Part shown: positions 7,823 through 37,738 of the stretch, one piece after another
Numbering within the stretch: position 1 is the first letter of the stretch
Layout of the letters: each line of letters starts with the position of its first letter
Assembly: GCF_001700965.1 (NCBI RefSeq)
Contig: NZ_CP016756.1
Location: 1,922,001 to 1,986,000, forward strand
Direction: 5' to 3'
Source of the DNA: Stenotrophomonas nitritireducens
GTDB lineage: Bacteria; Pseudomonadota; Gammaproteobacteria; Xanthomonadales; Xanthomonadaceae
Length of the DNA: 64,000 nucleotides
Program-made: the position numbers and the translations under genes
The notes under the pieces: generated by a model
Told to the model about the DNA's origin: nothing
Database searches by the model: none
What the model saw: the letters and a program-made list of their open reading frames with translations, nothing else

Positions 7823-7839
7823 GCAACGGGAGAATCTCC

Positions 7840-11329: not shown

Positions 11330-11343
11330 TCCACGGAGACAAC

Positions 11344-12171: not shown

Positions 12172-12183
12172 GGAGCAAAGGTC

Positions 12184-13846: not shown

Positions 13847-13890
13847 GCCAAAGCTCCTTGCGATCGTTGTGCCTAGTGTCTTTATCTAGG

Positions 13891-14943: not shown

Positions 14944-14959
14944 GCGTCCTCTCCGTTTA

Positions 14960-15062
14960 TTTCGTAATGTATTACATACCATGTAATTACGTACTACTCA
15001 ACGGGTGGATAGATCGGCATGTCGGTCCTAATTTCAGGCGGGATAATATTGAATTATCCCGC
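14960..15062. other. Candidate resolution site (rst/res) next to tnpT
   Basis: Two dyads lie upstream of tnpT. One is an AT-rich set GTAATGTATTAC / GTAATTAC around 14963-14993. The other is a perfect palindrome, GCGGGATAAT (15038-15047) and ATTATCCCGC (15053-15062), with a 5-bp spacer ATTGA. Ten-base arms around a short spacer are what a tyrosine recombinase core site looks like, and the position beside tnpT matches Tn4651-type elements. Function inferred. Confidence 0.6.
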
Positions 15063-15216
15063 GTAACCAGCGTTTCGGCCATTTCAAGTCGTCAAAACAG
15101 TACGAAACCGCCCAAGGCTGGCGATCCCTGGGTAGTTTGGCCCAGAGCGGAAAGGAGGCCAGCCGGGGTGCAAGCAGGCGCCGCCACCGAACTCGTTGGC
15201 CATCAAAGGACTGTGC

Positions 15217-20068: not shown

Positions 20069-22528
20069 TCACGACTGACGGAAGCCAAGGAGCCTCAGCG
20101 CATTGAATACAACCAACAAGGTTGAACCTTCATGCACTGCCACAGCCGGTCCAATGCCAAGACCTAGGATGGTCGCAGGAACCAACAACGCTACGACGCC
20201 CAGGCTCACATACACGTTCTGACGGATCACCCGTTTCGTGCGTCGACTAAGCGCTACAGAGAATGCAACCTGTCTCAAATCCTCAGACATAAGCGCGACG
20301 TCGGCAGTCTCCAGCGCTACGTCCGAAGAGGCGGCACCCATTGCAATTCCGACGCTGGCACTAGCCATTGCGGGTGCGTCATTCACACCGTCGCCGACCA
20401 TTGCCACTCGCTCCGTCTCCTTCAACTGACGTATTGCCTTCACCTTGTCGTCAGGCATGAGATTTCCCCATGCCTCGTTTAGACCCACGTCCGTTGCCAC
20501 GGCTTGAGCTACAGTCTGGTGGTCGCCAGAGATCATGATCATTCGTTGGATGCCCAAGCGCCTTAGCTTGTCCAGGGCTTCACGCGCCTCTGGCCGGGGC
20601 GTATCCATAAGGCCGATGACACCTAGGTCGCGATCACCTAGGCGAACGGCCATCGTGGTTCTGCCGGCGTTACGGAGCTCCTCAATGGCAGACTCCGCAC
20701 CCGCGGATAGAGCGCCAATGCCGTCGTTACCGAACATTTCTGCCTTTCCTATCCACACGTCAATGCCGTTCACCTTCGCCTGAACGCCTCTTCCAGCGAA
20801 GTTAGCGAGGTCTGTCGCTACCATGACCGGTCCATCGCCCAGGCGAGTATTACCATCTCGAACGATAGCTGCGGCCAAAGGGTGGTCACTTAAAGCCTCG
20901 ACGGCGACGGCAACGTGAAGCAGTTCCTGCTCTGTCGTTCCCTGCATCACTTTGATGTCGGTAATTCGCGGCTTGCCTTCAGTGAGCGTTCCAGTCTTGT
21001 CGAACGCGATGGCACGGACCATGCCCAGCTCCTCCAGTGGTGCGCCACCCTTGATGAGTACGCCACCTCGCGCAGCTCGCGCAATTCCCGCTAGAACCGC
21101 GCTTGGAGTCGCGATTGCCAGTGCGCAAGGGCTTGCCGCTACAAGTACCGCCATCGCTCGATAGAAGCTGTCGCGGAATGGCTCATCGATCACGATCCAT
21201 GAGAAAAGTAACAGCACGGCCAAGATCAGAACAGCGGGAACGAATACCCTCTCAAACTTGTCTGTGAAGCGCTGCGTTGGCGATTTCCTGGTTTCGGCTT
21301 CGCTCACCATCTTGACGACGCGGGCCAGTGCCGATTCGCCTGATCGACGCGTGACTTCAACCTCCAGGGCGCCGGAGCCATTGATAGTGCCGGCGAAAAC
21401 ACGTGACTCCATTACCACCGAATCAGGTCGATCCCGTGCTAGAGCAGCGTCATTGACTGCCAGCTTATCAACCGGGATGCTTTCCCCGGTGACAGGGGCT
21501 TGGTCAACGCTGCTAGCCCCTTTGATAACGAATCCGTCCGCCGGCATCCGGTCATTGGGACGTACGACCACCACATCTCCAGGTATCAACGATTCAACCT
21601 GGACTTCCACGACCTGCCCATTCCTCAGCACCCTGGCAGTTTCTGGGGCAAGCTTGGCGAGAGCTTCTATCGCACGTTTAGCCCGGCCCATCGCGTAGTG
21701 TTCAAGGGCGTGACCGAGACTGAAGAGGAACAGAAGCAAGGCGCCTTCGGCCCATGCGCCGAGCGCGGCTGCGCCTGCCGCTGCAACCAGCATCAGCGTA
21801 TCGATCTCAAAGCGCTTCAGCTTGATGTTCCCGATCGCCTCGCCAAGCGTGAACCAGCCGCCAAAGACGTAGGCTGCTACGTAAAACGCTGTGGGGATCC
21901 AGGGCGTTTGGGTCAACCCAAGCTTTTCAATCGCAAATCCCACGATCAGGAGCAGGCCGCAAGCAAGTGAGAAGATCAGCTCACTATTGCCACCTAGCGT
22001 GCCCCCGTGGGAATGACCGGGGTCCTGTCGGTCCTTGTGATCGTGTCCTTCGTGCTGATCCTTCAAATCTCCCCTCGGACTCGGTGGCTCTTGCGCTACA
22101 CCCAGCGCCTCAAGCTTCGCTCTCAGCTCCGCCTCGCCTGTCTTGGCTCTCTCGTACTCGATGCTTATGCCACCAGCTGGGCTGGTGGTGGCTTCAATGA
22201 CGCCTGGTACGGCCTGCACTTGCGCCGCAATTGTCCTTGCCTTTCGTGCGTGAACGGCCGAACCAAGCTCCAAGAAAAGGTGGCCATACCGATCACCCAA
22301 CTCAATGCCCACGGATGCCGCCACCTCTCGCACTCGCTGAAGCGAGACGATCTCGGGGTCGTAATGAATGCAGAGCGTTCCGAGAGCTTCGTCGCTACCC
22401 TCGCGAATGTGCACGCGCGATACTCCCTCCATGTCCTGAAGACCAGCGACCAGCCTCTGGACGCAGCTGTCGTCCCGAGAGACACCTGGGAGTATTACTG
22501 GCAGTTCGAGTTCTGTGGTCAGGTTCAT
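20069..22528 (-). CDS. P1B-type heavy-metal ATPase (SPC motif, CzcP/ZntA-like)
   Basis: 819 residues. The N-terminal 200 residues hold two degenerate metal-binding-like domains and a His-rich linker (HEGHDHKDRQDPGHSHGG). The core has the TGES actuator loop, the membrane metal site ASPCALAIATP, the phosphorylation site DKTGTLT and the GDGVNDAP hinge. The SPC signature, rather than CPC, places it in the P1B-4-like group that exports Co, Zn or Cd, as CzcP does. It exports metal from cytoplasm to periplasm, where CzcCBA can pass it outward. Part of the minus-strand czc region. Confidence 0.88.
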   Translation of the reverse strand: MNLTTELELPVILPGVSRDDSCVQRLVAGLQDMEGVSRVHIREGSDEALGTLCIHYDPEIVSLQRVREVAASVGIELGDRYGHLFLELGSAVHARKARTIAAQVQAVPGVIEATTSPAGGISIEYERAKTGEAELRAKLEALGVAQEPPSPRGDLKDQHEGHDHKDRQDPGHSHGGTLGGNSELIFSLACGLLLIVGFAIEKLGLTQTPWIPTAFYVAAYVFGGWFTLGEAIGNIKLKRFEIDTLMLVAAAGAAALGAWAEGALLLFLFSLGHALEHYAMGRAKRAIEALAKLAPETARVLRNGQVVEVQVESLIPGDVVVVRPNDRMPADGFVIKGASSVDQAPVTGESIPVDKLAVNDAALARDRPDSVVMESRVFAGTINGSGALEVEVTRRSGESALARVVKMVSEAETRKSPTQRFTDKFERVFVPAVLILAVLLLFSWIVIDEPFRDSFYRAMAVLVAASPCALAIATPSAVLAGIARAARGGVLIKGGAPLEELGMVRAIAFDKTGTLTEGKPRITDIKVMQGTTEQELLHVAVAVEALSDHPLAAAIVRDGNTRLGDGPVMVATDLANFAGRGVQAKVNGIDVWIGKAEMFGNDGIGALSAGAESAIEELRNAGRTTMAVRLGDRDLGVIGLMDTPRPEAREALDKLRRLGIQRMIMISGDHQTVAQAVATDVGLNEAWGNLMPDDKVKAIRQLKETERVAMVGDGVNDAPAMASASVGIAMGAASSDVALETADVALMSEDLRQVAFSVALSRRTKRVIRQNVYVSLGVVALLVPATILGLGIGPAVAVHEGSTLLVVFNALRLLGFRQS

Positions 22529-22606: not shown

Positions 22607-25600
22607 TCAGTGGACAGTTTCCGGTTGCCCTTTCGGGCCTGCCTTGGCCAAGCGTCCCGCAAATGTCGGCAGCACAAGAAGTGTTAGCACTGTTGCGGTC
22701 AACAGGCCGCCAATGACCACCGTGGCGAGAGGCTTCTGCACCTCAGCACCAGATCCACTCGCAATAGCCATTGGAATGAAGCCAACGATCGCCACCAGCG
22801 CGGTGGTCACCACCGCGCGAATTCGGCTGCCGGCACCGTTCATTGCAGCGATCAATGGACTGTCACCTGCATCAAGCCTCTCTCTGATGGCTTGCATGAG
22901 CACCAATCCATTCAGGGTCGCAACACCCGATACCGCGATGAATCCGACGGCGGCAGATACCGAGAACGGCATACCACGCACCAGCAACGCGAGAATTCCG
23001 CCAACCAGGGCCAGTGGGACGCAGGTGAACACCAGGCCCGCCTCCTTTGCGCTGCCCAATGCCATGAACAGCAGGCTGCCGATCAATAGGAAGACAATCG
23101 GAACAACTGTCATGAGTCGCTTTTCAGCCCGCTGCAAGTTCTCGAACTGACCTCCCCACGTCATGTGGGCGCCCGGCGGAAGCTGTACGTCCTTCACCGC
23201 CGCCTGGGCCTCTCCAACAAACCCGCCCAAGTCACGACCGCGAACATTTGCCTGCACCACCACACGACGGCTTCCATTGTTTCGACTGATCTGGTTCGGC
23301 CCCTCGCTGATCTCAATGCGTGCGACAGAGGAGAGCGGCACGATGCCCCCAGTTGGAGTTGCAATCGGCAGTGACGCGAGCTGATCGGGGTCATTGCGTG
23401 CATCGTCGCCGAGGCGCACAACAACATCGAACCGGCGGTCGCCCTCGAAGATCTTGCCTGCCGCAGCGCCGCCAATACCGGTTGAAAGCGCGTCGCTCAC
23501 GTCCGCTGCCGTGAGGCCATACTGCGCAGCTGCAAGATGATCGATTGCCACATTGAGCGTGGGCAGGCCGGAAATCTGTTCAACACGGACATCCGCTGAG
23601 CCCTGGACATTCCTCAGCTTCAGCGCGACCTGATCGGCAACAGCTTGCAGTTGCTCGAAGTTGTCGCCGTAGATCATGACGGCCAGGTCCGTACGCACGC
23701 CTGAGATCAGCTCATTGAAGCGCAGCTCGATGGGCTGGCTGAATTCAAAGCTGTTGCCTATCTGCGAGGCGGCGATCTTCTCAAACCTTGCAATCAGATC
23801 CTCCTTGCTCAGGGAAGAGTCTGGCCACTCCTTTCTCGGTTTAAGTACGATCACACTGTCGGAGATGTTGGTCGGCATGGGGTCGATAGCTGCTTCTGCA
23901 GTACCGGTCCGCGAGAAGACCGTCACAACCTCTGGTTCAGCAGCAATGGCCTTCTCCAGCGCCAATTGCATAGCCAACGATTGCTCAAGCGACGTCGATG
24001 GCACACGCAACGCTTGCATAGCGAGATTTCCCTCATCAAGCGTTGGCATGAACTCTCGACCCAGCATCGTAAAGCCGACCACGCCCATCGCGAGCATCAA
24101 AATGGCGCCAGCGAACACTGCCTTGGGCCTACGAATCGCCGCTTGGATCGCCGGTTCAATACGGCCGCGCAGGACGCGGATGATGGCAGTCTCATGTTCT
24201 TCGTCTTGGTCGCTCTCGTGCCCCTCCTTGTTCGCGTGGAGCTTGGGCTCCCTGACCAACAGGGCAGCCATCGCCGGTACAAAGGTGAACGAGAAGATAA
24301 ACGCGCCAACGAGGGCGAGCATGAAGGTGGCGGCCATCGGTTGGAACGTCTTGCCCTCCACACCTTCCAGCGTAAGGATCGGTGCGAACACCAACAGGAT
24401 GATCACCTGGCCGAAGGCTGCAGGGCGCGCCATTTTCCTCGCCGAGTCGGCGGCCACACGCAGTCGCTCCATGGCATTGAGGGGTCGGCCGAGTTCCGCA
24501 CGCCGCTTGCCAAGCATCAGCAGGGTGGACTCGATCACAATTACCGCGCCATCCACAAGGATGCCGAAGTCCAGCGCACCCAAACTCATGAGGTTGCCGC
24601 TGATGCCGAACTTGTTCATGCCGATAACAGCGAACAGGAACGACAGCGGAATGACCAATGCGGTGATGGCTGCCGCACGCAGGTTGCCCAGGAGCAGGAA
24701 CAGCACAACTACGACCAGCAGGGCACCTTCGGTCAGGTTCTTGGCGACAGTCTTGACAGTGGAGTTAACCAGCACACTACGGTCCAGCACTGGCTCTGCG
24801 AAGATATCGGCGGGCAGAGATTCATTGACCTGTGCCAGGCGCTCAGCTGCAGCTTGAGCGACGGTGCGGCTGTTGCCGCCGGCGATCATCAGTGCCGTGC
24901 CCAGTACCGCCTCATGACCATTTCGGCTAGCTGCACCAAGCCGTGGGGCGCGCCCCATACCGACCTCGGCAACATCGGCCACCCGGATGACCACACCGTC
25001 CTTGGTGGCCACCGGCGACTGAGCCAAGTCGTCGGTCGTCAGGGCAAGGCCGTCTGCCCTAACGACCAGGCCTTCGCCCGCACGCTGGACGAAACCCGCG
25101 CCAGCCTGGACGTTGGAGCGTTCCAGTGCTTGGACCAGATCGGCCAGACCCAAGTTGTATGCCGCCAGTCGAGCGCTGTCGGGGTAGATGCCGTATTCCT
25201 TGACGTACCCACCCACCGTATCAACACCGGCCAGGCCGGGGCTGGAGCGCATCTGTGGTGCGATGATCCAGTCCTGGACAGTACGCAGGTACGTTGCGCG
25301 CTCCTGGGCGGTTCCAAGACGATCGCCCTCTGGTGTCAGGTAGACCTCACCCTCTTGCCAGCCAGCCTGGCCGGGCTTGGCCAGCTTCTTGGGGTCGAAT
25401 GGCTTGAAGTCCACCGTCCACATGAGAACCTCGCCCAGCCCGGTTGTAACCGGGGAGAGCATGGGGGACACGCCCTCGGGCAGATCTCCGGCAGCCTCCC
25501 GCATCCGCTCTGCCACCTGCTGGCGGGCGAAATAGATGTCGGTCTGATCAGTGAAGATCGCGGTGACCTGAGAGAAGCCATTGCGTGATAGGGAGCGAGT

Positions 25601-25843
25601 GGTGTTCAGACCTGGGATGCCGGCCAAGGCCGTCTCCAGAGGATAGGTGACCTGGCGTTCAATCTGCTCCGGAGTAAGGGCAGGTGCGATGGTATTGATC
25701 TGAACCTGGCGGTTGGTGATATCTGGTACAGCATCGACTGGCAGCTTGCTCAGTTGGAACAAGCCAAAGCAGGCAATCGAAGCAGCCAGAAACACCACGA
25801 GCCAACGGAACTTGACCGCTGCTTCAATGATGATCTTGAACAT
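22607..25843 (-). CDS. czcA: CzcA-type heavy-metal RND efflux pump
   Basis: 1078 residues with the RND layout: first membrane helix after M-F-K-I-I-I-E-A-A, two large periplasmic loops, and the proton-relay helix LDFGILVDGAVIVIE. The D-F-G-x-x-V-D-G signature marks the HME1 group that moves Zn, Co, Cd or Ni. It forms the inner membrane pump of the tripartite CzcCBA complex. Separated by 15 bp from czcB. The His-rich loop near 24190-24240 (A-N-K-E-G-H-E-S-D-Q-D-E-E-H) fits metal handling. Confidence 0.94.
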   Translation of the reverse strand: MFKIIIEAAVKFRWLVVFLAASIACFGLFQLSKLPVDAVPDITNRQVQINTIAPALTPEQIERQVTYPLETALAGIPGLNTTRSLSRNGFSQVTAIFTDQTDIYFARQQVAERMREAAGDLPEGVSPMLSPVTTGLGEVLMWTVDFKPFDPKKLAKPGQAGWQEGEVYLTPEGDRLGTAQERATYLRTVQDWIIAPQMRSSPGLAGVDTVGGYVKEYGIYPDSARLAAYNLGLADLVQALERSNVQAGAGFVQRAGEGLVVRADGLALTTDDLAQSPVATKDGVVIRVADVAEVGMGRAPRLGAASRNGHEAVLGTALMIAGGNSRTVAQAAAERLAQVNESLPADIFAEPVLDRSVLVNSTVKTVAKNLTEGALLVVVVLFLLLGNLRAAAITALVIPLSFLFAVIGMNKFGISGNLMSLGALDFGILVDGAVIVIESTLLMLGKRRAELGRPLNAMERLRVAADSARKMARPAAFGQVIILLVFAPILTLEGVEGKTFQPMAATFMLALVGAFIFSFTFVPAMAALLVREPKLHANKEGHESDQDEEHETAIIRVLRGRIEPAIQAAIRRPKAVFAGAILMLAMGVVGFTMLGREFMPTLDEGNLAMQALRVPSTSLEQSLAMQLALEKAIAAEPEVVTVFSRTGTAEAAIDPMPTNISDSVIVLKPRKEWPDSSLSKEDLIARFEKIAASQIGNSFEFSQPIELRFNELISGVRTDLAVMIYGDNFEQLQAVADQVALKLRNVQGSADVRVEQISGLPTLNVAIDHLAAAQYGLTAADVSDALSTGIGGAAAGKIFEGDRRFDVVVRLGDDARNDPDQLASLPIATPTGGIVPLSSVARIEISEGPNQISRNNGSRRVVVQANVRGRDLGGFVGEAQAAVKDVQLPPGAHMTWGGQFENLQRAEKRLMTVVPIVFLLIGSLLFMALGSAKEAGLVFTCVPLALVGGILALLVRGMPFSVSAAVGFIAVSGVATLNGLVLMQAIRERLDAGDSPLIAAMNGAGSRIRAVVTTALVAIVGFIPMAIASGSGAEVQKPLATVVIGGLLTATVLTLLVLPTFAGRLAKAGPKGQPETVH

Positions 25844-25858
25844 GGTGTATGAGTTCCC

Positions 25859-27111
25859 TTAGTGGCCGTGCTCGGCTTCGCCCTTGGCCAGTTCGGCTTT
25901 GAGCAGGAAGGCATTGGCGCCTACGAGGCGCTCACTACCTGTCAGGCCGTTAAGGATTTCGATTCGATTACCTGCACGACGACCAGCGAGTACCGGCGTA
26001 GCCTGGAAACCACCCTGGACGGCAACGAAGACAACACTTCTGCCATCAACGCTTTGGACCGCATCCGCCGGCACACTCATACCTTCAGCGGCACTATCGG
26101 CGATGATGACGGCCGAAACGGGGGAGCCGGCCGGTGGCAACTTCTCCGAAATTGGTTTGGCGCGAATGGTCGCGGTGCCTCCCTGCTGCATCACATTCGC
26201 AGCGGCGGCAATCACCTCAGCTTCGAAGCTTCCGCCCGGGCCAGTCACTTCCAGCTTCATTCCGGGCACCGCGAGAGTGGCCAGTGCTGGCGGTGCAGTG
26301 AATACGAGTTCATTCATGTCCGGATTGGAAACCTCCGCAACAAGCGTTCCAGCTGAGACGACACCACCGGGCGTCACTTGGACGTTGCCAACCACGCCAG
26401 CGACAGGACTGGAGATTGTCACCCGGCCGGAACTGTCCGGAGATCCACTGGCCGCTACCTGTGCACGTGCAGCACTAGCGGCGGCATCAGCGGCCAAAGA
26501 GCGCGCGCGCGAGGCCTCCAGCTCCTGGCGAGCCACTACGCCCTGCTCGACAAGAGACTTGTCGCGGCCGTAGGCCAGGCGAATGGCTTCGGCCTCCGCC
26601 GCAGCGGCAGTGGCGGCGGCTTTGAAGGTCGCAGCTTCTCCACTGACAATGATCACCAGGGGCTGGTTGCTCTTGACGGCTGTACCCGGCGCAACAAGCA
26701 CGCGCTCAACGCGGCCGGTGACCGTTGAGGCGATGGCAGCACGCCCCCGATGGCCGGCTCGACGCGACCTGCAAGGCGGGTCGATGCGCCACCGCCGCGG
26801 CCGACAGCCACCACGCCGATGCCAGATGCCTTGATCTGGTCAGGCGTCAGCTTGACTACACCTTCCTCGGACTCCTCTTCGCCATGTTCGCCATCACCAT
26901 CACCTTCACTGTGCGCCTCGGCGGAGCCCGGCTTTGCGTCAGCTGCGTGATCGTCGTGACCATCATCCTTTCCAGCCGGCTTTTCTGCCTCCGTACCGGT
27001 GGATTTGGCATCCTCCTGCGCCCCGCCACTGCATGAGGTCAGCGCGCCGGTCATCATCAAGGTAGCCAGCAGCGTCGCTCCGATGAGCGTCTTGTTTCCG
27101 TACTTGTTCAT
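25859..27111 (-). pseudogene. czcB: czcB membrane-fusion protein gene with a one-base frameshift
   Basis: The N-terminal frame (27111 down to about 26745) gives a lipobox (A-L-T-S-C), a His/Asp-rich stretch (DDGHDDHAAD) and GRVEPAIGG. The rest, from about 26745 to 25859, continues in another frame (RVERVLVAPGTAVKSN, later GRVTISSPVAGVVGNVQVTPGG), giving a normal CzcB adaptor of about 415 residues. The break lies at the run of five C at 26744-26748; one extra base there reads I-G-G-R-A-A-I-A-S and restores the frame. It may be a real null or a homopolymer base-call error. Without CzcB the tripartite pump would not assemble. Confidence 0.85.
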
Positions 27112-28417: not shown

Positions 28418-28765
28418 TCAGATACGGGGGGGGCGCATGGGTCCGTCGAGTCGGAGGGCGTAGACGTCCCCGTGCTCGGTACTGTGCAGCGAAATCCGGC
28501 CATCGGCGAACAGATCGTCGTGACCGGCAGCTGGGAGGCTTGCCGTTGAATGGTGGCAATGCCCATGGCCACAGGCATCGGCACTGGACGAATCCTTGCT
28601 CTTGCTCGACTCGGAGTCTGAATCACTTTGCAAGGCGTGCACATCGCCCACGCTGACCGTCGCTTCTTGCGCGCACGCCAATGCCTCGGCCACAGGCACG
28701 ACCACGAACGCCGCCAAAAGCAGCAGCATCAGGTATATACGAATAGCAGGCAGAGAGCGACGCAT
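28418..28765 (-). CDS. CzcI-like small periplasmic His-rich protein
   Basis: 115 residues: N-terminal hydrophobic signal (IYLMLLLLAAFVVVPVAEA, probable cleavage after A-L-A), an acidic/Ser stretch, a Cys-His cluster D-A-C-G-H-G-H-C-H-H, and the C-terminal P-P-R-I. CzcI/NccX proteins are small periplasmic proteins encoded just before czcC and thought to modulate expression of the pump. Position and composition match; no alignment was made. A diverged paralogue with the same cluster is at 31586-31906. Confidence 0.65.
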   Translation of the reverse strand: MRRSLPAIRIYLMLLLLAAFVVVPVAEALACAQEATVSVGDVHALQSDSDSESSKSKDSSSADACGHGHCHHSTASLPAAGHDDLFADGRISLHSTEHGDVYALRLDGPMRPPRI

Positions 28766-28870: not shown

Positions 28871-29242
28871 TCAACCCACAAGGATAACGGCCCATGTGAG
28901 GGCGACATTGCAAAGAGCCACGAACACCGCAGCCGACCCCATGTCCTTCGCACGACCAGCCAGCTCATGGATTTCTGGGCCATACCGTTCGATCACTGCC
29001 TCGATAGCGGAGTTCAGCAGCTCGAATGCCAAAACGAACAGTACGCTCCCCATGAGAAGCACTCGCTCTACCCCTGAGTTGCCGAAAAAGATAGCTGTAG
29101 GTAATGCCACCGCGGCCATAACAACTTCCAACCGAAACGACGATTCATGCAGCCAAGCTGATCTCAGCCCCTGGAGAGACCAGCGAAGCGCCTCAAAGAC
29201 GCGCGCAATGCTCCGCGGACGATGACCGTACATATCTGCCAC
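28871..29242 (-). CDS. dgkA: Diacylglycerol kinase
   Basis: 123 residues, matching the roughly 120-residue DgkA family: an amphipathic N-terminus, three membrane helices and the catalytic segment FELLNSAIEAVIERYG with KDMGSAAVFVAL after it. It phosphorylates diacylglycerol, the by-product of phosphoethanolamine transfer from phosphatidylethanolamine. The GTG at 29242 is chosen because AAGGAAA lies 7 nt before it and the length then matches E. coli DgkA; an ATG at 29233 or 29269 is possible. It follows the eptA-like gene on the same strand. Confidence 0.85.
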   Translation of the reverse strand: MADMYGHRPRSIARVFEALRWSLQGLRSAWLHESSFRLEVVMAAVALPTAIFFGNSGVERVLLMGSVLFVLAFELLNSAIEAVIERYGPEIHELAGRAKDMGSAAVFVALCNVALTWAVILVG

Positions 29243-29313
29243 TTCGATGTTTCCTTCTTTTGGGCCCAAGAGACGCTCACGGGTCTTCCAACAGCGATAC
29301 TCGCCGTGGTCGG

Positions 29314-31029
29314 CTATAGGCTGTGACCGGCGTTGCTGGTACAGCCTGAGAACAGATTTAGGCTCTCGTCTAGCACCGTCGTCCTAACCTGCATCAGGCC
29401 AAGCACAGAATGGAAGAGGTTGTCGTGGCTGGACGGCTGCTTTGATCGGTCCCGGACACATTGAAGGTCCAGGTTGTTGCTGCTCTTCATACCATCAGAC
29501 ATCCACATCACCATCGGCACCTTGATCTGAGTATCAGGGGCGATAGCGTAGGGGAGCCCGTGAAGATAGACGTTCGCCTCCCCTAATGACTCGCCGTGGT
29601 CGGAGACATAGATCAGCCCGGTATCGTGACTCTTGTCCTGTTCAAGCATGCGAATTGTCTTTGCAAGGAAGTCATCTGTCGCAAGGACCGCGTTGTCATA
29701 CGCATTGACGATTTCACCGCGTGTGCACTTGCCCAAGTCTGCGTTTCGGCAGTCGGGAGTAAATTTCGTCAGATCTTCCGGGTATCGCTTGAAGTAGCTG
29801 GGTCCGTGGTTCCCCAGCTGATGTAGAACGACAACGACATCACCAGGGTTGTCCTCGATCGAGTCATGCAGACCTTGCAGCATAATCTCGTCACGGCATG
29901 CTTGGTCGTCGCACAGAACATCCTTGACCGGCACGCGATAGGATTCAAATGCCAGATCAGAGCAGACGCCCTTGCATCCAGTCTGGTTGTCACGCCATAG
30001 GGTCCTGACCCCGGCACGCTCCAAAACATGCAGAAGCGACTCCGAACCTTTGATCTTGTCTCGATCGTAGTCTCGCCTCCCGTACGCAGAGAACATACAG
30101 GGCACCGACACTTCGGTGTTTGACCCGCAGGCGGTCACGTCTGAGAAATTGACGACGTCCAACGCTGCCAACTGTGGCGTTGTCTGTCTGCCGTATCCAT
30201 TCAAACCCCAGTTCTGCGCACGAACCGTCTCACCTACAACGATGACCAAGAAGTGGGGCTTCGCGCCTGGCGGATGAGGCGTCATCATGGCATCGGGGCC
30301 AACCACTTGGATCGGACCGCGCTCCGCACGGGTGTCTTCTCGCACAACCTTCGCAATGGAAGCGATGTAGTTTCCAGGGTTTGCAAGGTATCTGACTTGC
30401 TTGTGATTGCGTATGAGTGATGAGAGGTCGTCGAATGACGCAATTGCCGCGCCAACGATTACAACAACCGCCATGCCAAGTAGAAGCACTCTTGCAAGTA
30501 TCGCCCGCGTCACATTGGAAGAACGTTGGAGCCTTACCATGCATACCGCGATAGCTGGCACGACGCCTTTAATTAGTACCGCAAGAAAGAAGCCCCAGGT
30601 CAGCAACTCTCCGGCTTCAGCGCCGTCGGTCTTCAGCACATTTCGTACCATGCTGGCGTCGAAGTAGACGCTGTAATTGTCTGAATAGTAGGCAGCAGTA
30701 GCGGACACGACGAGAAGCAATGCAAGAACCGGCTTCACCGTCCATCGAACGCATAGCAATCCGAGAATGAGCACATTCAAGGCAGTGAGGATCGCTCCCG
30801 TAGAGATAACAAGTAGCGCACGAGCTGCTCCGTCCGCACCACTCTTCGCAATTACTTCTGCGAAGAACGCGCTGTTGAGAAAGAACGTGAAGTACATCGC
30901 CACGATGATAATCAACGTGTTGACGCCCAGCTGCGGGCCGCAGATGGGCTTGCCAAGACGGCCCAGTGGATCTGAGCCTAGGCCCCCGCGCGAACTGCCT
31001 CGGTTGAATTCTGTTTTCACGTAATGCAT
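29314..31029 (-). CDS. eptA: Lipid A phosphoethanolamine transferase (EptA/MCR-like)
   Basis: 571 residues: five hydrophobic segments over about residues 25-190, then a periplasmic alkaline-phosphatase-like domain. Catalytic and zinc-site motifs are present: VVGETVRAQNWG, the nucleophile Thr in ACGSNTEVSVPCMFS (about Thr305), and SDHGESLGE. Paired cysteines (TGCKGVCSD, LCDDQAC) match the MCR/EptA disulfide pattern. From memory the sequence resembles MCR-5 more than MCR-1 (WRDNQ-x-GCKGVC, HxLGNHGPxYFxRYP). Such enzymes confer polymyxin resistance. ATG at 31029 with AAGGAA upstream; the open frame reaches 31539 but without family sequence. Confidence 0.9.
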   Translation of the reverse strand: MHYVKTEFNRGSSRGGLGSDPLGRLGKPICGPQLGVNTLIIIVAMYFTFFLNSAFFAEVIAKSGADGAARALLVISTGAILTALNVLILGLLCVRWTVKPVLALLLVVSATAAYYSDNYSVYFDASMVRNVLKTDGAEAGELLTWGFFLAVLIKGVVPAIAVCMVRLQRSSNVTRAILARVLLLGMAVVVIVGAAIASFDDLSSLIRNHKQVRYLANPGNYIASIAKVVREDTRAERGPIQVVGPDAMMTPHPPGAKPHFLVIVVGETVRAQNWGLNGYGRQTTPQLAALDVVNFSDVTACGSNTEVSVPCMFSAYGRRDYDRDKIKGSESLLHVLERAGVRTLWRDNQTGCKGVCSDLAFESYRVPVKDVLCDDQACRDEIMLQGLHDSIEDNPGDVVVVLHQLGNHGPSYFKRYPEDLTKFTPDCRNADLGKCTRGEIVNAYDNAVLATDDFLAKTIRMLEQDKSHDTGLIYVSDHGESLGEANVYLHGLPYAIAPDTQIKVPMVMWMSDGMKSSNNLDLQCVRDRSKQPSSHDNLFHSVLGLMQVRTTVLDESLNLFSGCTSNAGHSL

Positions 31030-31064
31030 TGGTGATTCCTTTTTATTGACCACCGCGCGCGCCC

Positions 31065-31421
31065 CTAGCGCACACGGCCGCCATTGCGCGTTCCTAGATG
31101 GAAAGCCATCCACACATATGCAACGCCTGACACCAGCGAAGGGGCCAGGACCGCGGTCCGCAGGTTTTGGGTCAGTGACAGCAGTGCAGCCGAGATCCAC
31201 ATGAAGAGACGCTTGTCTGGGTGCAGCTCCGCTCCCCGACGCGGGAACAGCGAGCTTCCGGTTGCCACCATTTGGGTGGCAACCAAGGCAAATCTCGGTT
31301 CGTCGACAGGCCCAAAATCGCGCACACCAAGAGATGCGCCGATGGCAAGCACGGAGGTTGCCATCAGTAGTGCCGCTCGATCGCGTGCAGTTCGGAGATT
31401 GGTAGATGTTGAGAAGGGCAT
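31065..31421 (-). pseudogene. ArnT-like glycosyltransferase, N-terminal fragment
   Basis: 118 residues matching only the start of a PMT/ArnT-type membrane glycosyltransferase: a first helix then GVRDFGPVDEPRFALVATQM and RRGAELHPDKRLFMW, the periplasmic loop signature with the D-E-P-R-F acidic motif. Full-length family members exceed 500 residues, so this is a truncated remnant ending in a stop 35 bp before eptA. ArnT adds aminoarabinose to lipid A, another polymyxin-resistance route, so the fragment suggests the eptA segment was taken from a chromosomal lipid A modification locus. Confidence 0.65.
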
Positions 31422-31585: not shown

Positions 31586-31906
31586 TCAAAGCCTGGGAGG
31601 TCTAATCAGCGTGTCCGGGATGTGGGACGTCATGGGCTGTTCGTAGAACGTGTGCCCGCCTTCATTTCTTGCGGCTTCGGCACTGGTGAAACCGTTGGAC
31701 GCCACAAAAGTGCTGCTGTGGTGGCAGTGACCGTGACCACAAGCGGCATGCGCCTTATCGGGGTGGCCATCGCCTGGCCCTGCCACTTCCTGGTGTGACT
31801 GCTCCTCAGAGAAGCAGACCGAAGCATCAACGACAGGCACGATGATCATCACTGCGAGCAGCAGTGCCAGAGCGTAGCGCTTGGCATGGATGACAATGGA
31901 AGGCAC
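31586..31906 (-). CDS. Second CzcI-like small His-rich exported protein
   Basis: 106 residues: signal peptide (YALALLLAVMIIVPVVDA), the cluster A-A-C-G-H-G-H-C-H-H-S shared with the protein at 28418-28765, and the C-terminal P-P-R-L. The two are clearly paralogues. This copy has no czcC behind it; an ArnT fragment and eptA follow instead. Probable periplasmic metal-binding or regulatory role, inferred from the neighbours. Confidence 0.6.
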   Translation of the reverse strand: MPSIVIHAKRYALALLLAVMIIVPVVDASVCFSEEQSHQEVAGPGDGHPDKAHAACGHGHCHHSSTFVASNGFTSAEAARNEGGHTFYEQPMTSHIPDTLIRPPRL

Positions 31907-32214: not shown

Positions 32215-32832
32215 TCATGCAGCCGTCTTGCGCGCGTCGGCACCTGCCCGGCGGGCATCACCTAAAATCTCGAAGGCTTCCTTGATCACATACAGGCCGA
32301 TCAGGGCGCCGATCACGAAATCCGGGTACGGGCTGGCCAGCCACCACACCAACAGACCGGCCAGGATCACCCCAACATTGGCGACCACATCGGCCCGCGT
32401 GAACAGCCACGTCGCTCGCAGATGCACTTCGCCGGACTTTAGCGGTGCCAGCATGCGCAGCACCGCCATATTGACCGCCAGCGACAGCAGGGCGGTGCCA
32501 ATCATCCAGCCGCTGACCGGCTCGGCGCCGTACATCACCCGGCGGCCCACCTCAACCAACACGCCCACACCCAGCACAAGCAGCACGCTGCCGCTGACCC
32601 AAGCGGCATTGGCCTTGAAGCGCGCCGTGCGCCCGATAGCGACCAGGCCAATGGCATAGGCGGTGGCATCGGACAGCATGTCCAGAGCGTCGGCCAGCAG
32701 GCCAGTGGAATGGGCAATCCAGCCGGCGATGCCGCCGATCACGGCCATCGCCGCGTTCAACGCTAGGGCGATCCAGAGGACGCGCCGCTCCTGCGCATTC
32801 TTGGCCTCGTGGTGGCAGCCGCAATCACTCAT
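32215..32832 (-). CDS. Cation diffusion facilitator family transporter
   Basis: 205 residues with six hydrophobic segments and a Cys/His-rich N-terminus (M-S-D-C-G-C-H-H). The CDF helix-2 site is seen in GLLADALDMLSDATAY and the helix-5 counterpart in TRADVVANVGVILAG; the D-x-x-x-D form differs from the H-x-x-x-D of ZitB-type zinc exporters. It lacks the usual C-terminal cytoplasmic dimerization domain. Transcribed from a MerR-type promoter shared with the divergent regulator, so it is probably induced by Zn, Cd or Pb and removes that metal from the cytoplasm. Confidence 0.85.
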   Translation of the reverse strand: MSDCGCHHEAKNAQERRVLWIALALNAAMAVIGGIAGWIAHSTGLLADALDMLSDATAYAIGLVAIGRTARFKANAAWVSGSVLLVLGVGVLVEVGRRVMYGAEPVSGWMIGTALLSLAVNMAVLRMLAPLKSGEVHLRATWLFTRADVVANVGVILAGLLVWWLASPYPDFVIGALIGLYVIKEAFEILGDARRAGADARKTAA

Positions 32833-32895
32833 CGGAACATCTCCAGTCGCAGGGAAGCCGGGCCCGGGCGGGTCGCTGGCATGACACAGCAGGTG

Positions 32896-32926
32896 AGTGT
32901 AAAGTCCGTAGCTACTACGGAGTCAA
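32896..32926 (-). promoter_or_regulatory. MerR-type promoter and operator for the CDF gene
   Basis: On the minus strand, TTGACT (-35) and TACACT (-10) are separated by 19 bp, the overlong spacer typical of MerR-activated promoters. The spacer holds the dyad CCGTAG-TAG-CTACGG, the usual MerR-family operator. It lies between the divergent CDF and merR genes. Confidence 0.85.
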
Positions 32927-32937
32927 GCGTACTACGA

Positions 32938-33351
32938 ATGAAAATCAGTGAGGCTGCCGACGCCAGTGGATGCCACCTGGAGACGATCCGCTATTACGAG
33001 CGGATCGGCCTGTTGCCGCGCCCGGGGCGCTCGGGCAATGGCTACCGGGTCTATGGCCCGGCCGACATCGAGCGGCTGCGCTTCATTGCGCGCGGCCGGG
33101 ACCTAGGCTTCAGCCTGGAGGAGGTCCGCAGCCTGCTGCAGCTGGCCGGCGATGAGGAGCTTTCGTGCGGGGACGTGGACCGGCTGGCACGCAGCCATCT
33201 GACCGACGTGCGGGCGCGCATGGCCGACCTGGAGCGCATGGCCACCGAGTTGGAACGGGTGATTGCCAGTTGCCACGGTGGGCAGCGGGCTGAATGCACC
33301 ATCCTGTCGACCCTGCGGCAGCCGGTCGCTGTGGAGGCCACGCGCCAGTGA
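32938..33351 (+). CDS. MerR-family metal-responsive regulator (CadR/PbrR/ZntR-like)
   Basis: 137 residues: N-terminal winged helix (HLETIRYYERIGLLPRPGRS), a coiled dimerization helix, and the C-terminal metal loop SCHGGQRAECTIL, with a further Cys in ELSCGDVD. This cysteine set is typical of Zn/Cd/Pb sensors that activate through DNA distortion. The ATG at 32938 starts the conserved M-K-I-S-E-A-A; earlier in-frame codons fall within the operator. tnpS begins inside its last codons. Confidence 0.9.
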   Translation: MKISEAADASGCHLETIRYYERIGLLPRPGRSGNGYRVYGPADIERLRFIARGRDLGFSLEEVRSLLQLAGDEELSCGDVDRLARSHLTDVRARMADLERMATELERVIASCHGGQRAECTILSTLRQPVAVEATRQ

Positions 33352-34619
33352 CCGAACTGGACCGCTACCTCGATGCAGCCACGCGCCAGAACACGGTGCG
33401 CAGCTATGCGTCGGCGCTGCGGCACTTCGAGGTTGAATGGCAAGGCCACCTCCCAGCGACACCGGACAGCGTGGCGCGGTACCTGGCCGCGTATGCGCAG
33501 ACCCTAGCCGCCAGCACGCTTCGCCACCGGCTGGCCGCCATTGCCTCTTGGCACCGCGACCACGGCTTTGTCGACCCGACCCGGTCGCCGCTGGTGCGCA
33601 AGGTGCTCAAAGGCATCCAGACCCTGCACCCGGGCCAGGTCAAGCAAGCCGCGCCGCTGCAGATTCGGCGGCTGGTCGAGCTCGATGACTGGTTGGCTGC
33701 CGCGATCGCGGCGGCGCATGCCCGGGGCGACGGAGCGGCGGCGCTGCGCCATCAACGCGACCGAGCGTTGGTGCTGCTCGGATTCTGGCGGGGCTTCCGT
33801 GGCGATGAACTGCTGCGTCTGGACGTGGCCCATCTCACGCTGGTGCCGGGACAGGGGATGACCTGTTTCCTGCCGCGCAGCAAGGGCGACCGCCAGGCCG
33901 CCGGCGTCACCTACAAGGTGCCGGCGTTGTCGCGGTTGTGCCCGGTGGAGGCGACCCAGGTGTGGCTGCAGGCGGCCGACCTGCACGAAGGGCCGGTGTT
34001 TCGGGAGGTTAACCAATGGGGCCAGGTGAGCGCCGAGGGCCTGCATCCCAACAGCTTGGTGCGCCTGCTACGCGAGTTGCTGACCAGTGCCGGCTTTGCC
34101 GATGCGGGGCTCCACAGCAGCCATTCGTTGCGCCGCGGCTTTGCCAGCTGGGCCAACGACCAAGGCTGGGACATGAAGGCGCTGATGGAGTACGTGGGCT
34201 GGCGCGATGTGCAGTCGGCCATGCGCTATCTGGACGGGCGTGACCCCTTTGCCCGTGACCGCATTGAAGCAAGCCTGCCCAGTCCAACCGCGCCGGTACC
34301 GGCGATGGCACTGCCGGCGCCCGAGGGCAAACCGGCCTTGCAGCTGCGCCTGCGCATGGTGCTGACCCCGTTTGCCCGCACGGGCCGCGGCGCGGCCAAG
34401 GCCCGAGGCCGGATCGAAGAGATCTGCTTGGCCCCGTTCCAGGCTGTGCGCCTGAACACTGCCAGCAGCGAGTACCAGTTGACTGTTCCCACCGATCCCG
34501 ACCGGGATCTGGATGAAATCCTGGCCACGTTGCTCGATGACATGCACCGCATGGCCGATACGCACCAGTGTTTCCTGGAAGCGTCTCTCAATACAGACGA
34601 CGGCCGGCACTGGGATTGA
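33348..34619 (+). CDS. tnpS: Tyrosine recombinase of TnpS type (cointegrate resolution)
   Basis: 423 residues with a phage-integrase fold: SAM-like N-terminal domain, then the catalytic Arg in GFWRGFRGDELLRL, the SHSLRRGFASWA box (H-x-x-R) and the nucleophile Tyr in V-Q-S-A-M-R-Y-L-D. Tn4651-type Tn3 elements resolve cointegrates with such an enzyme acting at rst. GTG start at 33348 overlaps the merR stop. It is followed by tnpA after 23 bp. About 100 residues beyond the catalytic domain form an extra C-terminal extension. Confidence 0.82.
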   Translation: MTELDRYLDAATRQNTVRSYASALRHFEVEWQGHLPATPDSVARYLAAYAQTLAASTLRHRLAAIASWHRDHGFVDPTRSPLVRKVLKGIQTLHPGQVKQAAPLQIRRLVELDDWLAAAIAAAHARGDGAAALRHQRDRALVLLGFWRGFRGDELLRLDVAHLTLVPGQGMTCFLPRSKGDRQAAGVTYKVPALSRLCPVEATQVWLQAADLHEGPVFREVNQWGQVSAEGLHPNSLVRLLRELLTSAGFADAGLHSSHSLRRGFASWANDQGWDMKALMEYVGWRDVQSAMRYLDGRDPFARDRIEASLPSPTAPVPAMALPAPEGKPALQLRLRMVLTPFARTGRGAAKARGRIEEICLAPFQAVRLNTASSEYQLTVPTDPDRDLDEILATLLDDMHRMADTHQCFLEASLNTDDGRHWD

Positions 34620-34642: not shown

Positions 34643-37636
34643 ATGGCTACCCTTCACGAGACCGCCTACCCGCGACTGAAGCCTGATCCCACCGCCAAGG
34701 AACTGGAGGAGATCTATACCCCCACCGCCGCTGAGATTGCATTCGCCAAGCAGCTGACCACCCAGCCGGGACCGCAGCTGGCGGTACTGATTCATCTCAA
34801 GCTCTTCCAGCGCCTGGGTTACTTCACGGTGTTAGCCGAAGTGCCCGAGCGGATCCGGAAGCACATCGCCAAGGCCGCCCGACTCGGGCGCGTATTGGAC
34901 ACCGACCAGCTCGAACGTTACGACGCTTCCGGTAGCCAGCGCCGCCATATGCCGCAGCTTCGGCAGTTCATCGGGGTACATCCCCTGGACAAATCAGGCT
35001 TGGCCTGGCTGGACACGGTGGCCACCGGAGCAGCCCAGACCAAGCACACCATCCCGGACATCGTGAACGTCCTGCTCGAAGAGCTGGTGCACCACCGCTA
35101 CGAACTGCCAGGCTTCCGCACCCTGGAGCTGGCCGCCATCGGCGCACGTGAGCGGGTCAATCTGGGCTACTACCGCAGCATCAGTCACGCGCTGACGCCT
35201 GCCACGCGCACGCTCATTGACGAATTGCTGCGCGCACCGGAAGGCTCCAGATTTACTGGCTGGCAATCGCTCAAGCGCGAGCCTGGCCGACCGACCAACA
35301 AGGAGGTCCGGTTCTATCTGCAGCACATCCGCATGCTGCAGCAGTTGGCCGAGCAGCTGCCTCCCATCGATGTGCCGGTGCCCAAGCTCAAGCAATTCCG
35401 TGCAATGGCTCGCGCCTATGACGCCAGCGAGTTAGCCGAACTGGCTCCGGACAAGCGCTATGCGTTGGCCACCATCTTCATTCGCGCCCAGCATGCCAAG
35501 ACGCTGGATGACGCAGCCGAGCTGTTCATCAAGCAGGTGCGCGGGCTGGAGAACACGGCCCAGCAAAAGCTGCTGGCCTACCAGCTCGAACATGCCAAGC
35601 GGGCCGACTTCCTGATCGGCCAGCTCAAGGAAATCCTGCAGGCCTATCAGCTCGACGGCAGCGATAGTCAGCGCGTGGATGCCATCGATAACAGTCTGGA
35701 AGCGGAAGTGTCGACCTTGTTGGCCGAATGCGAAGAACATATGGCATACGCAGGAAAGAACTATCTGCCTTTCATGCTGCAACCCTACGGCGCGGTCAGG
35801 CCGCTGCTGTTCAATGGGCTGGAGCTGATGAACTTGCGGGCAACCAGCCACGATGCCGGCATGGAGCCGTTGATTGCAGCGGTGCTGTCGCTGCGCAACC
35901 AACGCCGTGAGCTGATCGAGGTCGCATCCCTCGGCCTGGACCCGGAAAAGGACTTCGATTGGATGTCCAAGCTCTGGCGTCAGCACGTGTTTGGCAAGCG
36001 GGCCAGCGCGGCAGGCGCCGGCTGGATGCACCGTAAGTACTTCGAGCTGGCCGTGCTGGTGCAGGTCAAGGACGAACTGAAGTCGGGAGATCTCTTCATC
36101 CCGAGCAGCGAACGATTTGACGACTACCGCGAGCAGCTGGTCGATGAAGCCACCTTGGCCCAGGAACTGGAAGCCTATGGCCAGGTGTCAGGCTTGCCCA
36201 CCGACGCTGCGACTTTCGTGGCCGGGTTGCGCGCACAACTGACCGACTTGGCCGACGAAGTTGACGAGCGTTTCCCCGAGAATGTTCATGCGGACATTCT
36301 GGAAGGACGCCTGGTACTGCGGAAGGGGCAACGCGCCGAGGTCTCAAGCGCCATTGCCACCGTGGACCGCCTCATCGCCGAACGGCTCCCGGAGTCCAGC
36401 ATCGTCGATGTCCTGATCGACGCCAGCCAATGGCTGGATCTGCACCGATTCTTCCGTCCGATCGCCGGCACCGAGAGCCAGGTTGAAGATCTCCCTCGAC
36501 GGGTGATCACCACGCTGTTTTGCTATGGCTGCAACTTGGGTCCGACGCAGACGGCGCGGTCGATCAAGGGCTTCAGCCGGCGCCAGGTTGCTTGGCTGAA
36601 CCTGAAATACGTGACCGAGGATGTGCTTGAGAAGGCCATCGTAGAGGTCATCAATACCTACAATAAATTCGACCTCCCGGGCTATTGGGGCAGCGGGAAA
36701 AGCGCCTCAGCAGATGGCACCAAATGGAGCGTCTACGAGGACAACCTGCTGTCGGAGTACCACATCCGCTACGGCGGCTACGGCGGCATCGGCTACTAAC
36801 ATGTGTCCGACAAATACGTGGCGCTGTTCAGCCATTTCATTCCCTGTGGTGTGCACGAGGGCATCTACATCCTCGACGGCCTGCTGGCCAACACTTCCGA
36901 CATCCAGCCTGAGATCGTCCATGGCGACACGCAGGCCCAAAGCTACCCAGTCTTCGGTTTGGCCCACATGCTGGGCATCCAGCTGATGCCCAGGATACGA
37001 AACATCAAGGATCTGACATTCTTCCGGCCCGAACCTGGCAGGACCTATAAGAATATCCAGGCACTGTTCGGAGACAGCATCGACTGGCAACTGATCGCGA
37101 CGCATCTCCACGACATGCTGCGGGTAGTGATCTCGATCCGATTGGGGAAGATCACCGCGTCCTCGATCCTGCGCCGGCTGGGCACCTACAGCCGGAAGAA
37201 CAAGCTGTACTTCGCCTTCCGGGAACTTGGCAAGGCCGTCCGAACGCTGTTCTTGCTGCGCTACATCGATGACAACGAGATTCGCAAAACGATCCATGCT
37301 GCGACCAACAAGAGCGAGGAATACAACGGCTTCGTGAAGTGGGTCTTCTTTGGCAGCCAAGGGATCATTGCTGAGAACGTCCAACACGAGCAGCGCAAGA
37401 TCATCAAGTACAGCCAGCTGGTGGCCAACATGATCATCCTCCACAACGTGGAACGCATGAGCCGGACCTTGGCCGTAATGCAGAAGGAGGGGATTGAACT
37501 GACGCCCGAGATTCTGGCCGGCCTGTCGCCTTACCGGACCAGCCACATCAATCGCTTCGGCGACTACCACTTGGATCTTGAAAGGGAAGTGGCGCCGCTG
37601 AGCTATACAGCGAAAGTCCTTGAACAGGCCCCATAG
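34643..37636 (+). pseudogene. tnpA: Tn3-family transposase with an in-frame stop codon
   Basis: 997 codons of a Tn3 DDE transposase. Codon 719 (36797-36799) is TAA inside the conserved GGIGY-stop-HVSDKYVALF, where family members have a second Tyr, so TAC to TAA is a one-base change; both sides are in the same frame. The catalytic residues fall on both sides of it: Asp near 691 (SADGTKW), Asp near 762 (VHGDTQAQ) and Glu near 892 (SEEYNGFVKW). Unless the stop is suppressed or a sequence error, the element cannot transpose by itself. The gene ends 44 bp before the right inverted repeat. Confidence 0.92.
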
Positions 37637-37733: not shown

Positions 37734-37738
37734 CGCAT
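37734..37738. repeat. Target site duplication, right copy (CGCAT)
   Basis: Identical to 550-554. The MocR coding sequence resumes straight after it with codons for G-L-Q-V-D-R. Confidence 0.9.

What the first reader, a model, noticed from the sequence alone, without database searches (positions are those of the whole stretch)
28871..31421. EptA/MCR-like phosphoethanolamine transferase with dgkA and an ArnT-like fragment as transposon cargo
The motifs (VVGETVRAQNWG, catalytic Thr in SNTEVSVPCMFS, SDHGESLGE, paired Cys) identify a lipid A pEtN transferase, and the sequence recalls MCR-5, which is also carried by a Tn3-family element. dgkA recycles the diacylglycerol made by the reaction. The ArnT-like remnant upstream suggests capture from a chromosomal polymyxin-response locus. 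A mobile copy means transferable polymyxin resistance is possible.
Basis: partly seen in the sequence, partly recalled or inferred. Interest (0 to 1): 0.75.

Follow-up and report, generated by a model that had tools for sequence, protein, structure and literature searches.

The report
Mobile lipid-A gene in metal transposon
A 37-kb jumping element full of arsenic, zinc and cadmium resistance genes also carries an enzyme predicted to coat the bacterial surface with phosphoethanolamine, and the enzyme belongs to a distinct branch found beside metal pumps, so metals rather than polymyxin antibiotics may be what keeps it.

Summary
Confirmed: window 29314-31029(-) encodes a complete 571-residue EptA/MCR-type phosphoethanolamine transferase, followed by dgkA and preceded by the N-terminus of an ArnT-like gene. 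It is cargo of a Tn3-family transposon, 555-37733 (37,179 bp; terminal repeats 32/38 identical; 5-bp target duplication CGCAT; relatives carry the target without the element). A 24.6-kb element in Luteimonas mephitis (duplication CGGTT) also encloses ept. The enzyme recurs at 95-100% identity in Stenotrophomonas, Lysobacter and Luteimonas, although the chromosomal EptAs of the Lysobacter and Luteimonas carriers are only 53-57% identical to this host's. Reinterpreted: it is not MCR-5 (45%; curated cut-off missed) nor a mobilised host eptA (50%). It belongs to one well-supported clade, mostly Lysobacteraceae, whose members lie beside CzcA/CusA-type pump and CDF or P-type ATPase genes (14 of 14 assessable loci); of 20 chromosomal eptA loci none has such a pump and 19 have a RaxRH-like regulator pair (the other is a 4.5-kb contig). 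eptA elsewhere in the class shows no such link (3 of 26 versus 1 of 14 arbitrary regions). Best reading: lipid A charge modification as part of a zinc/cadmium module spread by a metal transposon; polymyxin resistance is possible but untested.

The parts
550..554 (.). target-site duplication CGCAT, left copy
   Evidence: second copy at 37734-37738
555..592 (+). left terminal inverted repeat (32/38 to the right one)
715..12909 (.). left cargo block: sulfate permease, ArsH, ArsC-like, ACR3, two FAD oxidoreductases, PstSCAB, PhoU
   Evidence: absent from the 24.6-kb Luteimonas element
13220..17872 (.). backbone: SEC-C protein, KfrA-like protein, Gabija-type GajA (15196-16797+) and GajB (16775-17872+); related genes stand in Xanthomonas plasmid elements
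19270..20088 (-). RaxR/ColR-like response regulator (65.6% to the host's chromosomal one); no similar partner kinase found in window 17000-20200
20069..22528 (-). heavy-metal P-type ATPase (cadmium-family model passed)
22607..25843 (-). CusA/CzcA-family RND pump (1311 bits, cut-off 701)
25859..27111 (-). CzcB/NccB-like adaptor, read in two overlapping ORFs in this window; a single 417-aa ORF in S. bentonitica L018
27108..28361 (-). czcC-like outer-membrane efflux protein
28418..28765 (-). small His/Cys protein (CGHGHCHHS...RPPR), leader 2, before czcC
28871..29269 (-). dgkA, diacylglycerol kinase
29314..31029 (-). ept, lipid A phosphoethanolamine transferase, 571 aa
31065..31421 (-). ArnT-like remnant (N-terminal part only)
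31586..31906 (-). small His/Cys protein, leader 1, before arnT remnant/ept; 31% identical to leader 2
32215..32832 (-). CDF-type cation transporter
32809..33351 (+). MerR-family metal regulator (specific MerR/CueR/CadR/ZntR models below cut-off)
33294..34619 (+). tyrosine recombinase (TnpI-like)
34643..37636 (+). Tn3-family transposase, interrupted by an in-frame stop in both copies of this genome
37696..37733 (-). right terminal inverted repeat
37734..37738 (.). target-site duplication CGCAT, right copy

Best explanation
This is a lipid A phosphoethanolamine transferase plus diacylglycerol kinase that form part of a zinc/cadmium-resistance module carried by a Tn3-family transposon. SHOWN by sequence: ept and dgkA lie inside the terminal repeats, on the same strand as and close to czcCBA-type and P-type ATPase genes; the element sits at several sites in three genera; the enzyme's active-site residues are complete and the gene is under purifying selection; its clade is linked to metal-efflux genes. 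INFERRED from known chemistry: the enzyme moves phosphoethanolamine from phosphatidylethanolamine to lipid A phosphates; DgkA recycles the diacylglycerol released. INFERRED from gene order: lowering the negative charge of the outer membrane reduces binding of Zn/Cd and protects the envelope while the RND, P-type and CDF pumps export the metal; expression follows metal through the element's own regulators or the host's RaxH/ColS-like kinase. Reduced polymyxin binding would be a by-product.
For: Mobility: repeats and duplication CGCAT; complete Luteimonas element with CGGTT; target without the element in 3 same-genus genomes; similarity stops at or within 8 bp of the right end in 4 other genomes with different flanks and in the second own copy. 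Transfer: 100% enzyme identity with Lysobacter, Luteimonas and S. nematodicola, while the chromosomal EptAs of that Lysobacter and Luteimonas are 53% and 57% identical to this host's. Metal link: CzcA/CusA-type pump within 1.1-3.8 kb of ept in 14 of 14 assessable clade loci, in 0 of 20 chromosomal eptA loci; one clade, SH-aLRT 100; not a general feature of eptA. Paired His/Cys leader proteins around ept in the element and, in another genus, in L072 and L073. Selection: dN/dS 0.083-0.096 for ept in five pairs, 0.076 for dgkA in one pair. Published: ColRS responds to zinc, and the colR mutant and an arnT-type operon mutant tolerate less zinc (PMC4074579, passages); RaxRH is its Xanthomonas orthologue beside arnT-lpxE-eptA (PMC8306577, passages).
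Against: No expression, lipid A or MIC data. The metal linkage is one clade, so the 14 loci are not 14 independent events, and four of them are copies of nearly the same module. Class-wide, eptA is not metal-linked above background. In P. putida, single loss of dgkA or cptA did not change zinc tolerance (PMC4074579). For mcr-12 beside czcCBA the authors judged expression constitutive and did not suggest shared regulation (PMC13373230). No kinase like the host's was found beside the element's regulator, which has Ala where the chromosomal one has Thr. The leaders are missing from most of the more distant metal loci.
Confidence: 0.65

Rival explanations
1. A true mobile polymyxin-resistance gene: cationic peptides (polymyxin-type, produced by soil bacteria) select it and the metal genes are neighbours by chance of capture.
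For: Same enzyme family and, among MCRs, nearest to MCR-5, itself beside a Tn3-family transposase; a dgkA neighbour is reported for mcr-3 and mcr-8, whereas canonical eptA sits with regulators (PMC10285318, passages); the plasmid with mcr-12 beside czcCBA gave a 32-fold higher polymyxin MIC than the cured strain (PMC13373230, passages).
Against: The clade is tied to metal pumps over deep divergence; the host already has a chromosomal eptA; most clinical Stenotrophomonas isolates of one study were already colistin-resistant, and their chromosomal mcr-8-like lineage also has dgkA as neighbour (PMC13402532, passages).
Confidence: 0.25
2. Hitch-hiker of no present function, kept only because it sits inside the metal operon.
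For: arnT next to it is already reduced to a remnant; ept is truncated in G287 (residues 208-571 only).
Against: dN/dS about 0.08-0.10, complete active-site residues, full length in 5 of the 6 genomes that hold a 95-100% match.
Confidence: 0.08
3. Ordinary vertically inherited chromosomal EptA.
For: 233 of 395 sampled family genomes have an EptA relative at E<=1e-150.
Against: Terminal repeats, duplications, target without element, two copies in this genome, patchy 100% identity across genera.
Confidence: 0.02

Closest known systems
MCR-5 on plasmid pSE13-SA01718 (Tn3-family transposase and recombinase adjacent)
   Same: pEtN transferase beside a Tn3-family transposase; a metal-related gene (chrB) alongside
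   Different: 45.1% identity, different branch; no czc, dgkA or CDF gene in the 10.6-kb stretch read; here a full multi-metal module
mcr-12 of Pigmentiphaga plasmid pPLE30.2 (PMC13373230, passages)
   Same: pEtN transferase gene beside czcCBA, with arsHCB in the same region; metal selection proposed
   Different: not close by profile (374.8 bits, cut-off 1200); plasmid without complete insertion sequence elements, judged likely non-mobilisable; its context called unique there, here a clade-wide arrangement moved by a transposon
Chromosomal RaxRH/ColRS-linked arnT-pap2-eptA locus (mcr-5-like lineage of Stenotrophomonas, PMC13402532, passages)
   Same: same enzyme family; ArnT-like gene and RaxR-like regulator
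   Different: 50% identity; pap2 instead of dgkA; conserved chromosomal position, no czc
Xanthomonas metal plasmid Tn3 elements (pLM159.1; p66/p93 of X. hortorum, PMC10878067, passages)
   Same: same backbone: KfrA-like/AAA/UvrD genes and CDF-MerR-recombinase-TnpA at 93-95% DNA identity
   Different: other cargo (arsenic genes in pLM159.1, a different RND pump at about 50%); no ept or dgkA relative found by tblastn in the two stretches read
czcCBA-CDF-ept-dgkA-ArnT module on Xanthomonas euvesicatoria pXpT32.1
   Same: same clade (61% identity), similar gene set
   Different: different gene order; CDF between the RND pump and ept; Tn3 ends not sought

Membership tests
EptA/MCR-type lipid A pEtN transferases | EptA_B_N membrane domain plus sulfatase-type catalytic domain | tested here: met
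   NCBIfam NF028537 601.8 bits, cut-off 500
EptA/MCR-type lipid A pEtN transferases | zinc/nucleophile residues Glu, Thr, Asp, His and five disulfide-type Cys pairs | tested here: met
   E267, T305, D477, H478; C301/311, 352/356, 373/378, 427/435, 524/563; aligned to NmEptA 5fgn
EptA/MCR-type lipid A pEtN transferases | transfers pEtN to lipid A | not testable with these tools
   needs lipid A mass spectrometry
EptA equivalog as curated by NCBI (PRK11598) | passes the curated cut-off | tested here: not met
   500.8 bits, cut-off 660
Named mcr families (MCR-1 to MCR-10, MCR-12, MCR-13) | passes the curated model of a named MCR family | tested here: not met
   best MCR-5 516.9 bits, cut-off 1250; all 12 exception models and the broad MCR-3 model missed
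Named mcr families (MCR-1 to MCR-10, MCR-12, MCR-13) | phylogenetic placement with a named MCR | tested here: not met
   quick tree with MCR-1, 3, 5, 8, 9, 10, whose branches are long; MCR-2, 4, 6, 7, 12, 13 not in the tree
mobile colistin resistance gene (functional sense) | carried by a mobile element | tested here: met
mobile colistin resistance gene (functional sense) | raises polymyxin MIC | not testable with these tools
   no phenotype available
Tn3-family transposon | Tn3 transposase, about 38-bp inverted repeats, 5-bp target duplication | tested here: met
   transposase interrupted in this genome, uninterrupted 1001-aa frame in 4 other genomes
zinc/cadmium resistance module | CzcCBA-type RND genes and heavy-metal P-type ATPase close by on the same strand as ept-dgkA | tested here: met
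   co-transcription itself not tested; CzcA not told apart from CusA by the model
zinc/cadmium resistance module | ept contributes to metal tolerance or is metal-induced | not testable with these tools
   needs knock-out and transcript data

The most novel reading that the evidence does not exclude
Phosphoethanolamine capping of lipid A is itself a dedicated heavy-metal defence: a whole lineage of EptA has been specialised inside metal-efflux modules for a long time, with its own DgkA and, in some, a His/Cys leader protein, and metal transposons rather than antibiotics mobilise it. Mobile colistin-resistance genes such as MCR-5 and mcr-12 could then be offshoots of metal-resistance modules.
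Probability: 0.3. Interest if true: 0.75.

Novelty: new variant of a known kind. Interest (0 to 1): 0.5.

Why it matters
It gives a natural, movable pairing of lipid A remodelling with metal efflux, in a lineage separate from the named mcr families tested and from the host's chromosomal eptA. That makes an open question directly testable by gene removal in environmental hosts: do metals, not polymyxins, drive mobilisation of pEtN transferases? It also shows that surveys that count every Stenotrophomonas pEtN transferase as intrinsic may merge two lineages, one chromosomal and one on a transposon.

Tried and rejected
Rejected: MCR-5 membership; mobilised copy of the host's chromosomal eptA (50% identity, separate clade); general linkage of eptA to metal genes (3 of 26 class-wide loci against 1 of 14 arbitrary regions, p = 1); presence in E. 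coli (no megablast match in 20,395 records) or close copies on plasmids (best plasmid relative 61%).

Led nowhere: long repeats within window 15000-50000 (none found); the left end of the second copy (no repeat with a matching duplication in the 62 kb searched; an unpaired repeat at C1:42465-42502 has a different flank); a partner kinase for the element's response regulator (no hit to the host's kinase in window 17000-20200; the ORF at 18551-19297 has no family match). Two minus-strand ORFs that I first scanned at 15034-16890 are shadows of the GajA gene on the other strand. The L017 row of the regulator alignment came out empty by a coordinate slip and was not used. Literature searches listed no paper that I recognised as describing this ept on a Tn3 element; seven papers were opened, by passages only.

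Rows dropped: before the tree, seven near-identical or partial loci (L013, L014, L016, L060, L062, L063, L064) and all but 19 of the P-proteins were left out; L074 was trimmed at its N-terminus. L060 was left out of the 14-of-14 count because its contig is 6.8 kb and ends short of czc. L082 (4.5 kb) was kept in the 20 although too short to show pumps or regulators. Of the 120 proteins listed, those after P0059 were not used.
Full report
OBSERVATION. Window 29314-31029(-) is a 571-residue protein with the EptA_B_N and sulfatase domains that passes the NCBIfam lipid A pEtN transferase domain model (601.8 bits, cut-off 500) but not the EptA equivalog nor any of the 12 named MCR models listed. The catalytic residues and ten disulfide-type cysteines are complete, and the best match among solved structures by sequence is Neisseria EptA 5fgn (418 bits). 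dgkA follows at 28871-29269(-). The ArnT fragment (31065-31421(-)) is real: S. bentonitica L018 has a 563-aa ArnT-like gene directly upstream of its ept, and the window keeps about its first 111 residues (65% identity).

TRANSPOSON. A 38-bp repeat at 37696-37733(-) recurs at 555-592(+) with 6 mismatches, and both ends are flanked by CGCAT, so the element is 37,179 bp. Of 61 genus genomes searched, three besides this one match the left flank nearly full length (76-79%); in all three the right flank follows 31-82 bases on, with nothing of the element between. The two flanks each hold part of an aminotransferase-type domain, so the target was one gene. In four other genomes (S. nematodicola, L. 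mephitis, S. maltophilia 13146, S. nitritireducens) DNA similarity of 97.5-99.5% stops at or within 8 bp of the right end, with different flanks. The Luteimonas copy has both ends: 24.6 kb with duplication CGGTT and the same interior, ept included; it lacks the window's left arsenic/phosphate/sulfate block. This genome (one 4.54-Mb contig) has a second copy that runs over the contig end; it matches the window from about 15,040 to 37,733 with one substitution and nine inserted or missing bases, and the two ept genes encode identical proteins. Its left end was not found. The transposase has an in-frame stop in both own copies and an uninterrupted 1001-aa frame in the four relatives. The backbone is shared with Xanthomonas plasmid elements that carry other metal cargo; two stretches read there have no ept or dgkA relative (PMC10878067, passages), so cargo is exchangeable.

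HOST AND SPREAD. A pattern scan of the species-representative collection gave 35 stretches, of which 9 encode a relative: all in Stenotrophomonas, Lysobacter or Luteimonas; six are 95-100% identical (one of them partial), three 82-84%. That scan uses six exact peptide patterns and can miss diverged copies. Of 395 family genomes searched, 6 (this one included) hold a 95-100% match, in 3 genera, one of them partial. No megablast match was found in E. coli genomes; among plasmids the best relative is 61% identical (X. euvesicatoria), then MCR-5 at 45%. In the protein database the 84% cluster is named Stenotrophomonas; one 93% fragment has no named host.

TWO LINEAGES. I fetched stretches of up to 20 kb around 40 family hits: the top 20 by ept score and 20 near-50% chromosomal hits, and searched them with the module's proteins. 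The 15 hits of at least 57% identity (L060-L073, L075) include 14 with a CzcA/CusA-type pump 1.1-3.8 kb from ept plus a CDF or P-type ATPase gene; the fifteenth (L060) is a 6.8-kb contig too short to tell. The other five of the first set (55-56%; one, L074, scores slightly above L075) lie in the known regulator-kinase-pap2-eptA arrangement, as do 19 of the 20 of the second set, mostly with arnT; the twentieth (L082) is a 4.5-kb contig with arnT-pap2-eptA. None of these 25 has such a pump. dgkA is present in 10 of the 14. In a 71-row tree the 17 labelled metal-linked rows are one side of a branch (SH-aLRT 100), with MCR-1, 3, 5, 8, 9 and 10 outside (quick search, long MCR branches); 16 database rows of unknown context also fall inside, one of them named Ectopseudomonas, so the clade is mostly but not only Lysobacteraceae. 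Fisher's test, 14/14 against 0/20, gives 7e-10, but the rows are related and near-copies are among them, so this is clustering in one lineage, not independent gains. Gene order and pump identity (38-100%) vary within the clade, so either the link has outlasted rearrangement or new pumps have been joined to it. As a control, 26 class-wide eptA loci outside the family had a metal-transporter hit in 3 cases (a CzcA-type pump in 2) against 1 of 14 arbitrarily chosen regions (pump in 0): linkage is a property of this clade, not of eptA. Several of those 26 contigs are short, which lowers the count. Three other plasmid-borne ept genes that I picked from the best hits (Halomonas, Cupriavidus, P. koreensis) also have metal genes nearby, but they were not a random sample.

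MODULE ANATOMY. On the minus strand the order is leader 1, arnT remnant, ept, dgkA, leader 2, czcC, czcB, czcA, P-type ATPase, response regulator. The RND pump passes the CusA/CzcA model (1311 bits, cut-off 701), which does not tell zinc from copper pumps; the best model of the larger adaptor ORF is CzcB/NccB, below cut-off (the gene is split here). The two leaders are paralogous small proteins (31% identity) with a CGHGHCHHS motif and RPPR near the end; a motif scan found such leaders in the element's copies and close relatives and, in another genus, on both sides of ept in L072 and L073, but in 0 of 20 chromosomal loci; L050, L065-L071 and L075 of the metal clade lack them too. The regulator is 65.6% identical to the host's RaxR-like regulator; no similar kinase lies near it. 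ept and dgkA are under strong purifying selection (dN/dS 0.08-0.10).

MECHANISM. Known chemistry of the family gives pEtN transfer from phosphatidylethanolamine to lipid A, with DgkA recycling diacylglycerol. In Pseudomonas, excess zinc activates ColRS, and the Xanthomonas orthologue sits beside arnT-lpxE-eptA (PMC4074579 and PMC8306577, passages; the pEtN result of Nowicki 2015 was seen only as cited there). The simplest reading is that the element pairs metal export with surface-charge reduction. Polymyxin resistance remains possible: in Pigmentiphaga the plasmid with mcr-12 beside czcCBA gave a 32-fold higher polymyxin MIC than the cured strain, though its authors judged mcr-12 constitutive and not co-regulated with czc (PMC13373230, passages). 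[quoted passage not shown] whether the extra ones are this element was not tested.

NOVELTY. Each ingredient is known: EptA/MCR enzymes, ept-dgkA pairs (mcr-3), a Tn3 element with an mcr gene (MCR-5), an mcr gene beside czc (mcr-12). New, as far as my searches show, is a metal-linked clade in Lysobacteraceae and its transfer between genera by a defined Tn3-family metal transposon.

Counts of the two lineages were redone, the pump is now called CzcA/CusA-type, the backbone ORFs were re-read as Gabija genes, and the chromosomal identity figures were limited to the Lysobacter and Luteimonas carriers.

Noticed in passing
window 15196-17872: The element's backbone carries a Gabija-type anti-phage pair, GajA (987 bits) and GajB (639 bits) by PADLOC; Xanthomonas elements with the same backbone have AAA and UvrD-helicase genes in the same place.
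   Followed up: partly
window 51949-55283: Right of the element: a SIR2 protein that matches SIR2-Argonaute defence models (706 bits), followed by a 483-aa ORF not examined; also a MobA/MobL-type relaxase (42285-43010) and DUF3987, DUF932 genes, like another integrated mobile element.
   Followed up: partly
window 34643-37636: tnpA carries an in-frame stop in both copies of this genome, while four relatives have an uninterrupted frame; yet two copies exist, so movement happened before the stop, in trans, or by recombination.
   Followed up: partly
window 25859-27111: czcB reads as two overlapping ORFs; a close relative has one ORF. The two own copies differ mainly by single-base length changes, which may be assembly error.
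   Followed up: partly
G000:C1 4525024 to contig end and 1 to about 6000: The contig start and end lie inside the second copy of the element, and its left end could not be matched to a duplication.
   Followed up: partly
window 28418-28765 and 31586-31906: Paralogous small His/Cys-rich proteins precede czcC and the arnT remnant/ept; also on both sides of ept in L072 and L073 of another genus.
   Followed up: partly
window 15-608 and 37799-38485: The element interrupts a gene with an aminotransferase-type domain (MocR-like by recall).
   Followed up: partly
L012 1831-3143: In Lysobacter ruishenii about 1.3 kb of extra DNA interrupts the element at window 31784-31788 with a 5-bp overlap, like an insertion sequence.
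   Followed up: no
L064 (G287): A truncated ept (residues 208-571) without the transposase end remains beside czc in one same-genus genome.
   Followed up: no
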